This document shows positions 46,470-50,127 of a stretch of 64,000 nt of DNA, piece after piece. The notes under the pieces are model-generated. The model had not been told where the DNA came from. It saw only the letters and a program-made list of their open reading frames with translations, and did no database searches. This stretch comes from Candidatus Marinarcus aquaticus (GTDB taxonomy: Bacteria; Campylobacterota; Campylobacteria; Campylobacterales; Arcobacteraceae), in assembly GCF_004116335.1 (NCBI RefSeq), contig NZ_PDKN01000005.1, positions 62,001 through 126,000 on the forward strand. Direction: 5' to 3'. How positions within the stretch are numbered: the first letter of the stretch is position 1; each line of letters starts with the position of its first letter. The position numbers and the translations under genes are program-made.

Positions 46470-47222
46470 TTGAAAGTAGGCGTATTTGATTCAGGGATTG
46501 GTGGTTTAACGGTGGTTAAATCACTCATTGAACACAAGTTGTTTGAAGAGATTATATACTATGGAGACACTGCACGTGTTCCGTATGGAGCCAAAGATAA
46601 AAATACAATTATTCGCTACTCTTTAGAGGCCTTAGAGTTTTTTAAAAACTTCGATATTGACATGCTCATTGTTGCTTGTAATACTGCTTCGGCTTTTGCT
46701 ATCCAAGATTTAAAAGAGGTTGCATCCATTCCTGTGGTGGGAGTGATTCAACCGGGGGTCTTAGCTGTACAAAACCGACTTGAAAATAAAGAGTCCAATA
46801 TTTTGGTTATTGCAACCAAAGGAACCATTCAATCCAATCGTTATCAAAATGAACTGCATGCATTGGGTTATAAAAATATCAATGCGATTCAAACGGGTTT
46901 ATTTGTTCCTATTGTTGAAGAGGGGATTTTTGAAGGTGAAGTATTGGACGCCACTTTAAAACACTACTTTAATGGCATTAAAGGTGTAGATGCCGTCATT
47001 TTAGGTTGTACGCACTTCCCTTTGATTGCAGATAAAATTGCTTCTTATTTAGATGGGTGTCAAACCATCCACTCAGGAGAGGCCATCGTGGATTACTTAA
47101 TCCATGAACATAAACATGATAAAAATTTTGAAAAAACAAAGGTGACTTTTTTTGCTTCAGAAAATCCAGAAGGGTTAAAAAAAGTTGCTAAAAACTGGTT
47201 AGGGAGTCTTTTAAATGATTGA
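46470..47222 (+). CDS. murI: Glutamate racemase
   Basis: MurI supplies D-glutamate for peptidoglycan. The 250-residue protein has VGVFDSGIGGLTVVKSL, YGDTARVPYGAK, the first catalytic Cys in VACNTASAFA and the second in LGCTHFPLI. The start is TTG at 46470 (after AAAGGCAAAAA-like spacing). Its end overlaps dnaX by 8 nt. Confidence 0.95.
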   Translation: MKVGVFDSGIGGLTVVKSLIEHKLFEEIIYYGDTARVPYGAKDKNTIIRYSLEALEFFKNFDIDMLIVACNTASAFAIQDLKEVASIPVVGVIQPGVLAVQNRLENKESNILVIATKGTIQSNRYQNELHALGYKNINAIQTGLFVPIVEEGIFEGEVLDATLKHYFNGIKGVDAVILGCTHFPLIADKIASYLDGCQTIHSGEAIVDYLIHEHKHDKNFEKTKVTFFASENPEGLKKVAKNWLGSLLND

Positions 47223-49278
47223 AGAAAAACGTGTACTGGCGTTAAAGTATCGTCCGAAACGATTTGAGGATCTTATTGGTCAAAGCACCATTTCACAAAC
47301 ATTGAGTTTGGCGCTTGACTCCAATCGTCTTTCACATGCTTATTTGTTCTCTGGGCTTCGAGGAAGCGGTAAAACAAGTACGGCAAGAATCATGGCCAAA
47401 GCACTGTTATGTTCGCAAGGACCCACATCAAAACCGTGTGATGTGTGTGAAAATTGTCAAAGTGCCAATACCAATCGACATTTAGATATTATTGAGATGG
47501 ATGCAGCAAGTAACCGTGGGATTGATGATATTAAAGATTTGATTGAACACACCAAGTATAAACCAAGCAGCGCACGATTTAAAGTCTTCATCATCGATGA
47601 GGTTCATATGCTCACTCCACAAGCGTTTAATGCCTTGCTTAAAACACTTGAAGAACCTCCAGGATTTGTTAAGTTTATTTTAGCAACAACTGATCCACTG
47701 AAACTGCCAGCAACGATTTTGAGTCGAACGCAACACTTCAGGTTTAAAAAGATTTCTCAAAAAGATGTGATTCATCACCTCTCTCATATTTTGCATGAAG
47801 AGAATATTGAGTTTGAAACTGAAGCGTTGGAAGTGTTAAGTCGAAGTGGACAAGGAAGTTTACGAGATACCCTGACACTGATGGATCAAGCCATTATCTT
47901 CTCAAAAGGACGTATTACAACGAGTTCAGTGACGGATATGTTGGGATTGATTGATCCAAAATTCATGGACAATATTTTCCAAACGGTATTAACAAAAGGG
48001 GATATTAACCCTATTATTAGCGCACTTGAAGAGTATGAAGCAGGGCAAATTTGTGATGAGATTACCATCTATTTAAAACAAAAAATGTTGGAACGTGATC
48101 CTAAATTTGATGTCTTGTTGTATGATCGATTTTTTAGAATTGTAGCTGATGCCAAACATCTGTTGAGTCTGAATTCTGACAGTGGCTTTGTGCTTATTTT
48201 AATGCTTTCAAAAATGATTGAAGCGACCAACTTAAAAAGCATTGAAGAGATCATTAACGAAGTTGAAAACGTAGAGGTCAAAGAGACGCCAATCAAAGAG
48301 GTACAAGTAAAAACAGACGTTGCACCAACAACTCAATCTGTACAAAATGAAGTGACTGTTTCTGCACCTGTTCAACCCGTGCAAACAGCCGAATCAGAAG
48401 CTGTTGTTGAACAACCTCAAGAGGCGAAGCCAACACTAACTGAACCTGAACCAATAAAAACAGTTGAACCCGTACAAACTGCGGTTGCACAAGAGCCTGA
48501 ATCCATGCCAACCATGCCAGAACCAAACCCCGTTGTGCAAGAAACAGTGGAGCAAGAGGTTCCAGCTCCTTCTCAACCAGCACCACAAGTGGTAGAACCA
48601 CAAGTGCAACCGGAGCCAAGTGTGCCTTACCCAACGCCATTTGATGAGTATTCTGATGAAACACCATTTGATAGCAATAACAGTTTTGATGATGTCAGTG
48701 CGCAAGAGGAGACCAGTTATGAACCTTCACCTGCAATTGCCGATATTCCATTGGGAGATATCATCAGTGAGCCTGAAAAACCAATGGACCCATATGAACA
48801 AAAGTATGAGGAACTTATTGATAAAATCTTTGATCGAAGTTATGACTTGGGTGTGGTGTTTGAGAAAAACTTTGAGTACACCTCCTTTGAGAATGACATT
48901 TTACATATCACGTCGTATGCAGTGGATGAAGAGAGAAAGATGCTGTATAGTAACTTTGCACTCATACGTACATTTGTGGCCGATGTTTTCGGGGTCAATA
49001 CACAAATGGAGTTTTCAAAAGGGGATGTTGAAAAAAAGGATGAAACCCCCACTGCACAGGAGCAAGATGCCAGCAGTGCGGGGTCAATGTTAGAAGATAT
49101 TGAACTCAATGGTGCCGAATCAACCAGTGCAGGGTGTGTGGCAGATATGACCAAATCAAGCCAACCCAAACCTGCTGAACAAGAGATTCAAATACAAGAT
49201 GTCTTGGATTCACCCATGGTTAACAGAGCCAAAGAGCTCTTTGATATTAAACGTATCACAATACGAACAAAAACATAA
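47215..49278 (+). CDS. dnaX: DNA polymerase III subunits tau and gamma
   Basis: DnaX is the clamp-loader ATPase. The 687-residue tau has Walker A in GLRGSGKTSTARI, the zinc module CDVCENCQ, Walker B in FIIDEVHM, LATTDPLKLPATILSR and SRSGQGSLRDTL. A long Pro/Glu/Val/Gln-rich linker (about 360-490) precedes the C-terminal domain. An A AAA AAG heptamer at codons 606-608 is followed by a -1-frame stop and a hairpin. A 609-residue gamma form is therefore expected by programmed frameshifting. Confidence 0.94.
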   Translation: MIEEKRVLALKYRPKRFEDLIGQSTISQTLSLALDSNRLSHAYLFSGLRGSGKTSTARIMAKALLCSQGPTSKPCDVCENCQSANTNRHLDIIEMDAASNRGIDDIKDLIEHTKYKPSSARFKVFIIDEVHMLTPQAFNALLKTLEEPPGFVKFILATTDPLKLPATILSRTQHFRFKKISQKDVIHHLSHILHEENIEFETEALEVLSRSGQGSLRDTLTLMDQAIIFSKGRITTSSVTDMLGLIDPKFMDNIFQTVLTKGDINPIISALEEYEAGQICDEITIYLKQKMLERDPKFDVLLYDRFFRIVADAKHLLSLNSDSGFVLILMLSKMIEATNLKSIEEIINEVENVEVKETPIKEVQVKTDVAPTTQSVQNEVTVSAPVQPVQTAESEAVVEQPQEAKPTLTEPEPIKTVEPVQTAVAQEPESMPTMPEPNPVVQETVEQEVPAPSQPAPQVVEPQVQPEPSVPYPTPFDEYSDETPFDSNNSFDDVSAQEETSYEPSPAIADIPLGDIISEPEKPMDPYEQKYEELIDKIFDRSYDLGVVFEKNFEYTSFENDILHITSYAVDEERKMLYSNFALIRTFVADVFGVNTQMEFSKGDVEKKDETPTAQEQDASSAGSMLEDIELNGAESTSAGCVADMTKSSQPKPAEQEIQIQDVLDSPMVNRAKELFDIKRITIRTKT
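49020..49084 (+). promoter_or_regulatory. Programmed -1 frameshift site of dnaX
   Basis: The zero frame reads GAA AAA AAG GAT, giving the heptamer A AAA AAG at 49032-49038. After a -1 slip the next codons are GGA and TGA (stop 49041-49043). AGGGG lies at 49020-49024, seven bases upstream. Six bases downstream ACCCCCACTGC (49045-49055) pairs with GCAGTGCGGGGT (49073-49084), an 11-bp stem with one bulged C. All three E. coli dnaX elements are present. Confidence 0.85.
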
Positions 49279-49290
49279 GAAGGAGAAGAG

Positions 49291-50127
49291 ATGCAAAAAG
49301 CAATGACCTATTTTTTATCAACCGTGTTACTCTCTTTGAGTGCATCTGCCATTGCAATCGATGATAAAGTATTGGATTTTGAAAAACAGCGACTCAAAGC
49401 CAATAAACAAATTGAGGTGCAAGATATTCAGTTGAGTTTTAAAAAAGAGTTGCCTCAAAAAGAGTGGTATGGATTTTTGTTTGATATTGATGCCAACTTC
49501 AAAGGAAAACAAGTCAAGTTCAAAGACATTGTGTTTTCAAATGGAGAGTACATTGCTCTTGATTTGATTCACATTGATACCCATGAGAGCATCAAAAAAG
49601 ATGTCATGCCCAAATTAACCAATGCTTATTATAAAAAAGAGAATTTGTTGCTTGGGAACCCTGAAGCAAAAGATACAATTGTCGTCTTCTCTGATCCTTT
49701 ATGCCCTTTTTGTATGGATTTTATTCCCGATGTGATTCGACACGTACAAAAACATAAAAACAGCATTGCTTTATACTATTATCATTTTCCATTATTGCAA
49801 CTGCACCCCGCATCAGGAGTCTTAACACGATTGATGGATGTGGCGATTGAGCAAGGAAATAAAGATATTGTATTGAAAGTTTATGAAGCCGATTGGGACA
49901 AATACTTTACAGAACAAGAGACCAATGAAATCAAAATATTAGAGGCATTTAATAAAGAGTTAAACACCCACATTACTTTGGAGCAAATTCAAACAAAAAA
50001 AATCAATGAGAAGATTTTAGATGACATCCAAATGGGTGAAAATGCCTTGGTACAAGGAACCCCAACCATTTTTGTCAATGGAGAAAAAGACAGTAATAAA
50101 ACAAAATTTTTAGAGTTAGGAAAGTAA
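49291..50127 (+). CDS. Periplasmic DsbA/DsbG-like thiol-disulfide oxidoreductase
   Basis: The 278-residue protein has a signal peptide (about 1-22), a ~90-residue N-terminal region and a thioredoxin-fold domain with the active site PLCPFCMDF (CPFC). The cis-Pro loop is GTPTIFVNG. It probably oxidises or isomerises periplasmic cysteines. The physiological partner is not visible. It is followed by hemC at a very short distance. Confidence 0.86.
   Translation: MQKAMTYFLSTVLLSLSASAIAIDDKVLDFEKQRLKANKQIEVQDIQLSFKKELPQKEWYGFLFDIDANFKGKQVKFKDIVFSNGEYIALDLIHIDTHESIKKDVMPKLTNAYYKKENLLLGNPEAKDTIVVFSDPLCPFCMDFIPDVIRHVQKHKNSIALYYYHFPLLQLHPASGVLTRLMDVAIEQGNKDIVLKVYEADWDKYFTEQETNEIKILEAFNKELNTHITLEQIQTKKINEKILDDIQMGENALVQGTPTIFVNGEKDSNKTKFLELGK

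What the first reader, a model, noticed from the sequence alone, without database searches (positions are those of the whole stretch)
49020..49084. Complete -1 programmed frameshift cassette in dnaX of a Campylobacterota genome
The sequence shows an in-frame A AAA AAG heptamer (49032-49038), GGA TGA in the -1 frame, an AGGGG seven bases upstream and an 11-bp stem with one bulge starting six bases downstream. This matches the E. coli dnaX signal element by element, with slightly different distances. It predicts a 609-residue gamma beside the 687-residue tau. I do not know of a report for this lineage.
Basis: partly seen in the sequence, partly recalled or inferred. Interest (0 to 1): 0.75.

Follow-up and report, generated by a model that had tools for sequence, protein, structure and literature searches.

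The report
dnaX frameshift sites that switch direction
A gene for part of the DNA-copying machine carries a built-in signal that makes some ribosomes slip backwards one letter and stop early, giving a long and a short protein; most relatives keep the same long-or-short choice at the same spot, but most of them through a quite different signal that slips ribosomes forwards, which has not been reported for this gene in the literature I could search.

Summary
Window dnaX (47215-49278, 687 aa) has in-frame A_AAA_AAG at 49032-49038, a -1 TGA at 49041-49043, AGGGG seven bases upstream, and an 11-bp one-bulge stem six bases downstream (fold z -2.5 to -3.2).

The reading is only partly right. The site is not where E. 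coli's is. It lies just after the folded, domain-V-like region, so the predicted 609-aa product keeps that domain. It loses only a disordered linker and a conserved C-terminal helix that, by position, matches E. coli tau's polymerase-binding end.

Comparing 96 Arcobacteraceae dnaX genes showed something larger. Nearly all have a recoding site at this place, of different kinds. Thirty have A-runs with an early -1 stop: A6-7 with a stem (window and seven g10 species, with compensatory changes), or A10-12. Sixty have AAGGA-N4-NCC, a Shine-Dalgarno-like, prfB-like +1 signal. In 48 of these the tail is in frame and +1 stops within 1-6 codons; in 12 the tail lies in the +1 frame, so +1 shifting is needed for full length. 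Best trees give 6-7 switches of direction.

I found no report of +1 frameshifting in dnaX. No protein data were available; efficiencies are unknown.

The parts
47215..49278 (+). dnaX, DNA polymerase III gamma/tau subunit, 687 aa full-length (tau-like) product
   Evidence: ORF; NCBIfam PRK08451 DNA polymerase III subunit gamma/tau, 722.7 bits; Pfam DNA_pol3_delta2 and DNAX_ATPase_lid
48790..49023 (+). Codons of the folded C-terminal domain (KH-like, DnaA-domain-I-like; probable DnaX domain V)
   Evidence: AlphaFold2 block means of pLDDT 88 or more over model residues 1-80; best match DnaA domain I 4tps, Z 9.1; the fold is stated to be shared by DnaA domain I and DnaX domain V (PMC9912922)
49020..49024 (+). 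Shine-Dalgarno-like AGGGG, seven bases before the heptamer
   Evidence: Sequence; absent in congener G001; AGGAG one base further away in G055, G069, G070
49032..49038 (+). -1 slippery heptamer A_AAA_AAG (inside A7, 49031-49037)
   Evidence: Sequence and frame; only tRNA-Lys(UUU) found among the 41 tRNA genes read in this genome
49041..49043 (+). TGA in the -1 frame, one codon after the slip; ends a 609-aa product
   Evidence: the -1 stop comes within 1-4 codons in all 30 A-run genomes
49045..49084 (+). Downstream stem-loop: 49045-49055 pairs with 49073-49084, C49079 bulged
   Evidence: Fold z -2.5 to -3.2; no such stem in G001; equivalent stem with compensatory changes in seven g10 species
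49036..49050 (+). AAGGA-TGAA-ACC-CCC: match to the relatives' +1 motif overlapping the -1 site; +1 stop only at 49091-49093; possibly vestigial
   Evidence: the motif occurs 61 times in 61,961 dnaX codons, 60 of them at this site in +1-class relatives
49039..49275 (+). 79-residue C-terminal tail lost by the short product: disordered linker, then the conserved QDVLDSPMVNRAKELFDIKRITIRTKT helix
   Evidence: pLDDT mostly below 50 in the linker, helices at model residues 135-139 and 142-151; tail conserved across Campylobacterales

Best explanation
The window carries a programmed -1 ribosomal frameshift signal in dnaX. Ribosomes decoding AAA AAG in A_AAA_AAG slip back one base, helped by the downstream stem and possibly by the upstream AGGGG, add one Gly and stop at TGA. 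This gives a 609-aa DnaX beside the 687-aa one. The short form keeps the clamp-loader ATPase, the linker and the domain-V-like fold but lacks the C-terminal helix and tail that correspond by position to E. coli tau's polymerase-alpha-binding end. It would therefore load clamps without tethering the polymerase: gamma-like in function, though not in domain content. Across Arcobacteraceae the same two-product choice is kept at the same place by interchangeable recoding signals: -1 slippage on A6-7 plus a stem, poly-A (A10-12) slippage, or +1 slippage on AAGGA-N4-NCC. In the last kind an SD-like element 4 nt upstream and a codon with no G34 tRNA push the ribosome forward, either into an early stop or, in 12 species, into the tail. 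Shown: sequences, frames, stops, codon bias, stem covariation, tRNA set of one +1 genome, tree. Inferred: that shifting occurs, its efficiency, the mechanism on long A-runs, and the biochemical role of the tail.
For: Cassette anatomy. A-run with a -1 stop within 1-4 codons in 30 of 36 genomes without the +1 class site. Stem with changes on both sides at 2 of 9 pairs, 98.4% of cells paired, no slid register close to it. The +1 motif occurs exactly once per gene in 60 genomes of 8 genera, never elsewhere in frame and never in the other two frames. Its NCC codons are 1.4-4.4% of NCN codons elsewhere in those genes, and TCC/CCC/GCC/ACC run at 0.6-2.2 per 1000 codons. The +1 stop comes within 3 codons in 47 of 48 in-frame genes, null 0.35. 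In 12 species the conserved tail is in the +1 frame with third-position-rich differences, e.g. 3/1/13 for G064-G065. G009's tRNA set has Pro-UGG, Ala-UGC, Thr-UGU and Ser-UGA/GCU only. CC[C/U]-[C/U] with tRNA-Pro(UGG) is documented as +1-prone (PMC4519876). The +1 genes are not one clade (p-AU 1e-36); 6-7 switches on best trees. E. coli tau residues 611 to at least 636 bind alpha (PMC11470591).
Against: No protein, ribosome-profiling or reporter data. -1 stops are common in this AT-rich linker (28% within one codon, 48% within three), so the stop alone is weak evidence. The sister species lacks the stem and Shine-Dalgarno-like element. Six family members (g6, g12, two of g9) show neither signal by my motifs. 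The correspondence of the tail with E. coli tau's alpha-binding end rests on position and my own recollection of the E. coli sequence; a profile search of PDB did not return tau.
Confidence: 0.8

Rival explanations
1. Transcriptional slippage: RNA polymerase slips on the A run, so the mRNA pool itself is heterogeneous, as in Thermus dnaX.
For: Relatives g3, g14, g15, g16, g18, g20 and congener G001 have A10-12, mostly without a stable downstream stem. Poly-A dnaX genes are known (PMC3711429).
Against: The window has A7, at the low end of the A runs listed for dnaX in PMC3711429 (mostly 9-10), and has a strong stem, which transcriptional slippage does not need.
Confidence: 0.12
2. No recoding in the window: a Lys/Glu-rich linker gave the heptamer, the -1 stop and the stem by chance.
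For: AT-rich disordered linker; -1 stops are common; elements differ between the two congeners.
Against: The joint occurrence is unique in the window, and the same place carries a recoding signal in 90 of 96 family genomes.
Confidence: 0.1
3. The window uses +1 rather than -1: AAGGA-TGAA-ACC-CCC works as in the +1 relatives, the heptamer being incidental.
For: It is the only in-frame match of the +1 motif outside the +1 class, and it lies at the homologous place.
Against: The +1 stop is 14 codons away against 1-6 in the others; this genome has a Thr-GGU tRNA, so ACC is not short of a cognate tRNA; ACC-C is not the CC[C/U]-[C/U] type.
Confidence: 0.05
4. The 12 split genes are sequencing errors or decaying pseudogenes.
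For: A one-base difference separates them from a single ORF.
Against: Twelve species in three genera break at the same motif; the tails remain conserved in the +1 frame with mostly third-position differences between close pairs; dnaX is essential in E. coli (established knowledge).
Confidence: 0.03
5. In split genes the tail is made as a separate small protein by re-initiation or internal initiation at the conserved Met of SMIEDIE.
For: That Met is conserved in most tails.
Against: No Shine-Dalgarno-like sequence before it on inspection; it lies well beyond the zero-frame stop; the frame is already open from the NCC site; the AAGGA-N4-NCC motif would be unexplained.
Confidence: 0.05

Closest known systems
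Escherichia coli dnaX -1 programmed frameshift (gamma/tau)
   Same: A_AAA_AAG, immediate -1 stop, upstream Shine-Dalgarno-like element, downstream stem with a bulge; short and long DnaX from one gene.
   Different: Site is after, not before, the domain-V-like fold (codon 608 of 687 against about 430 of 643); Shine-Dalgarno spacing 7, against about 10 in E. coli (own knowledge); cassette not shared by the congener.
Thermus-type and two-ORF poly-A dnaX (transcriptional slippage; PMC3711429, PMC5009743)
   Same: Several Arcobacteraceae genera have A10-12 at the site; two-ORF dnaX is known as an arrangement.
   Different: The window has A7 with a stem; the 12 split genes of this family use a +1 NCC site without a long A run.
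prfB (release factor 2) +1 programmed frameshift
   Same: The relatives' +1 site has an internal Shine-Dalgarno-like sequence very close to a P-site codon prone to +1 slippage; prfB has AGGGGG three bases before CTTT (PMC12421855).
   Different: Sense codon, not a stop, in the A site; NCC instead of CTT; the gene is dnaX; shifting mostly ends rather than continues the protein.
Caulobacter dnaX (gamma by proteolysis; PMC5009743)
   Same: Two DnaX forms differing at the C terminus.
   Different: There the short form is made by cutting tau, not by recoding.

Membership tests
E. coli-type dnaX -1 frameshift cassette | In-frame A_AAA_AAG slippery heptamer | tested here: met
   49032-49038
E. coli-type dnaX -1 frameshift cassette | Stop in the -1 frame directly after the shift | tested here: met
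   GGA TGA, 49038-49043
E. coli-type dnaX -1 frameshift cassette | Stimulatory stem 5-6 nt downstream | tested here: met
   11 bp from 49045, z -2.5 to -3.2; covariation shown in g10 relatives, not for the window's own stem
E. coli-type dnaX -1 frameshift cassette | Upstream Shine-Dalgarno-like stimulator at about 10 nt | tested here: inconclusive
   AGGGG present at 7 nt; absent in the congener
E. coli-type dnaX -1 frameshift cassette | Position before domains IV-V, so gamma lacks both | tested here: not met
   The site follows the domain-V-like fold; model residues 1-78 precede it
E. coli-type dnaX -1 frameshift cassette | Match to the Rfam DnaX frameshift element | tested here: not met
   No such family among hits at E up to 10
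E. coli-type dnaX -1 frameshift cassette | Both proteins observed | not testable with these tools
   No expression data held
Poly-A transcriptional slippage dnaX (Thermus type) | Run of at least 9 A at the site | tested here: not met
   Window A7; relatives in seven genera A10-12
prfB-type +1 programmed frameshift (relatives' site) | Shine-Dalgarno-like element at fixed short distance from the slip codon | tested here: met
   AAGGA exactly 4 nt before NCC in 60 genomes
prfB-type +1 programmed frameshift (relatives' site) | Stop codon in the zero-frame A site | tested here: not met
   A-site codons are TCC, ACC, CAA, CGN, CTC, AGG or CAG
DnaX gamma/tau subunit | Curated family match above cut-off | tested here: met
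   NF006280 722.7 bits, cut-off 572

The most novel reading that the evidence does not exclude
In Arcobacteraceae, selection keeps two DnaX proteins differing by the polymerase-binding tail, while the recoding device that makes them has been exchanged repeatedly among -1 ribosomal slippage, poly-A slippage and +1 ribosomal slippage. This would be the first +1 programmed frameshift in dnaX and a case of one conserved output with a switching direction of frameshift. The window's site, where AAAAAAGGA serves a -1 heptamer and also matches the Shine-Dalgarno part of the +1 motif, may be an intermediate.
Probability: 0.72. Interest if true: 0.85.

Novelty: new variant of a known kind. Interest (0 to 1): 0.75.

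Why it matters
Whether the short DnaX matters, and why only some bacteria make it, has long been argued. Here a family of about 100 species keeps a short form while repeatedly replacing the means of making it, which is strong comparative evidence that the short form is selected. It also narrows the likely functional difference to a short C-terminal tail rather than two domains. For recoding research it offers a natural series of orthologous sites that shift -1 or +1, including species in one genus where the long form is made by normal translation in some and by +1 shifting in others. Annotation pipelines are likely to call the 12 split genes broken (inference).

Tried and rejected
Rfam scan for the known DnaX element: no hit. 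Profile search of the C-terminal region against PDB sequences: no relative, only chance guanylate cyclase hits at E 0.09-0.2. Foldseek/VIA on the predicted C-terminal domain: DnaA domain I best (Z 9.1); E. coli tau domain V was not among the rows shown, which does not exclude it. Link between the A-site codon ACC and loss of tRNA-Thr(GGU): complete within g2 (0 of 16 against 13 of 14) but a single independent contrast on the tree, so not evidence. Whether the nine split g10 genes arose once or several times: not resolved (p-AU 0.066). Literature: none of the searches found dnaX frameshifting in Arcobacter or Campylobacter, or any +1 dnaX site; the library lacks most subscription papers. Frameshift efficiency was not estimated; no sequence-based estimate would be reliable.

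Full report
Check of the observation. dnaX is 47215-49278 on the + strand, 687 codons, a clear DNA polymerase III gamma/tau subunit. The codons at the site are GAA AAA AAG GAT GAA. A_AAA_AAG is 49032-49038, the -1 reading is GGA TGA, and AGGGG is seven bases upstream. An 11-bp stem with C49079 bulged starts six bases downstream, with z -2.5 to -3.2 depending on the stretch folded. Among about 20,800 codons of window ORFs only six in-frame A_AAA_AAG occur. This is the only one with the stop one codon on, and its fold is far stronger than the others'. The Rfam DnaX element is not hit.

Where the site is. A model of residues 526-687 (six-sequence alignment) gives a confident fold over its first 78 residues, then disorder, then two helices near the C terminus. 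The fold matches DnaA domain I best, a KH-like fold stated in the literature to be shared with DnaX domain V (PMC9912922). The slip site is at model residue 81, just after the fold. The predicted short form therefore keeps the ATPase, the linker and the domain-V-like fold, and loses only the linker-plus-helix tail. E. coli tau binds Pol III alpha through residues 611 to at least 636, beyond or at the end of its domain V (PMC11470591; PMC4703070). The tail motif here (DxLxxPMVxKAKELFxxKKIxVxxK), conserved across Campylobacterales, stands in the same place. That it binds alpha is inference.

Relatives of the -1 class. dnaX was taken from the 104-genome family set; 96 were usable. Thirty of the 36 outside the +1 class have an in-frame A-run at the site with a -1 stop within 1-4 codons (G071 is counted because its tail is longer than the zone used). 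Run length splits them: A6-7 with A_AAA_AAG in the window, g10 and g4; A10-12 in g3, g14, g15, g16, g18, g20 and the window's congener G001. Seven g10 species have a stem at about the same distance as the window's, with compensatory changes at two pairs, while sliding the register destroys pairing. G001 has no stem and no Shine-Dalgarno-like element, so the exact cassette of the window is not conserved even in its genus. Early -1 stops alone are weak evidence, since 48% of random positions in this region have one within three codons.

Relatives of the +1 class. Twelve species in three genera have a zero-frame stop shortly after the site, while the conserved tail continues in the +1 frame, with mostly third-position differences between close pairs. 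All share AAGGA, four bases, then CCC, TCC or GCC. The same motif is present once, in frame, at the same place, in 48 further species whose tail is in frame. In 47 of these the +1 frame stops within three codons (the other at six), against 35% of random positions. The motif occurs 61 times in 61,961 dnaX codons, never in the other two frames. Sixty are these genomes at this site; the 61st is the window, where it overlaps the -1 heptamer. The codons are very rare otherwise (0.6-2.2 per 1000). In G009, a complete +1-class genome, the tRNA set has only U34 tRNAs for Pro, Ala and Thr, and Ser-UGA and Ser-GCU for Ser, so no NCC codon has a G34 tRNA. CC[C/U]-[C/U] sequences read by tRNA-Pro(UGG) are documented as +1-prone, and the CCC-CG studied there is the site of G091 and G044 (PMC4519876). 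prfB uses AGGGGG three bases before its slip codon (PMC12421855), so the close Shine-Dalgarno-like element fits a forward push. Pro sites can re-pair in the +1 frame; GCC and TCC sites cannot re-pair fully, so there the next tRNA may simply read the +1 codon (inference).

History. On trees of the N-terminal part of DnaX, which leaves the site out, the class changes 6-7 times. Forcing all +1 genes into one clade is strongly rejected. Genus g10 contains both classes; whether its +1 members form one clade is unresolved (p-AU 0.066), and if they do the count of switches falls. Outside the family the tail is conserved but recoding signals are sporadic: a +1 motif with early +1 stop in G248 (f14), and a two-ORF gene with A9-10 and the tail in the -1 frame in G113 (f11).

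Mechanism proposed. In the window, -1 slippage of tRNA-Lys on A_AAA_AAG, with UUU the only Lys anticodon found among 41 tRNAs read, stimulated by the stem and perhaps by AGGGG, yields a 609-aa form. In relatives the same outcome is reached by poly-A slippage or by +1 slippage. In all, the choice is between DnaX with and without the tail. Shifting itself, its efficiency and the function of the tail are not shown here.

Comparison with the literature. Known dnaX recoding is the E. coli -1 cassette, Thermus-type poly-A slippage, a two-ORF poly-A type, and proteolysis in Caulobacter (PMC5009743; PMC3711429). I found no report for Arcobacter or Campylobacter, and no +1 dnaX, within an open-access library. 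The window's site works like the E. coli cassette but fails one of its defining features, position. It is best called a new variant of a known kind; the family-level switch of direction is the real news.

Noticed in passing
L029, L030, L033, L034, L035, L086, L089, L092, L098, L104, L068, L064 (dnaX of 12 relatives): dnaX split into two frames at AAGGA-N4-NCC, tail in the +1 frame; annotation would probably call these genes broken.
   Followed up: yes
L160 / L309 (G248, another family, f14): dnaX carries ATA AAG GAA GAA CCC CGA CAG with an early +1 stop: the +1 motif outside Arcobacteraceae.
   Followed up: partly
L155 / L308 (G113, family f11): Two-ORF dnaX: GTA AAA AAA AAA TAG with the conserved tail continuing in the -1 frame, like the poly-A two-ORF type.
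   Followed up: partly
Family genomes, the genome search pattern results: tRNA-Ala(GGC) matches were found only in g1 (window's genus) and g6, neither of which has +1-class sites; within g2, species with ACC in the A site lack the tRNA-Thr(GGU) match and nearly all with TCC have it, but this is one contrast on the tree.
   Followed up: partly
L078, L079, L081, L048, L062, L067 (g6, two of g9, g12): Family members with the C-terminal region but neither recoding signal by these motifs; either lost or of another type.
   Followed up: no
46470-47222 and 49291-50127: dnaX start overlaps the end of a glutamate-racemase-like ORF by 8 bases; a thioredoxin/DsbC-like ORF follows 12 bases after dnaX.
   Followed up: no
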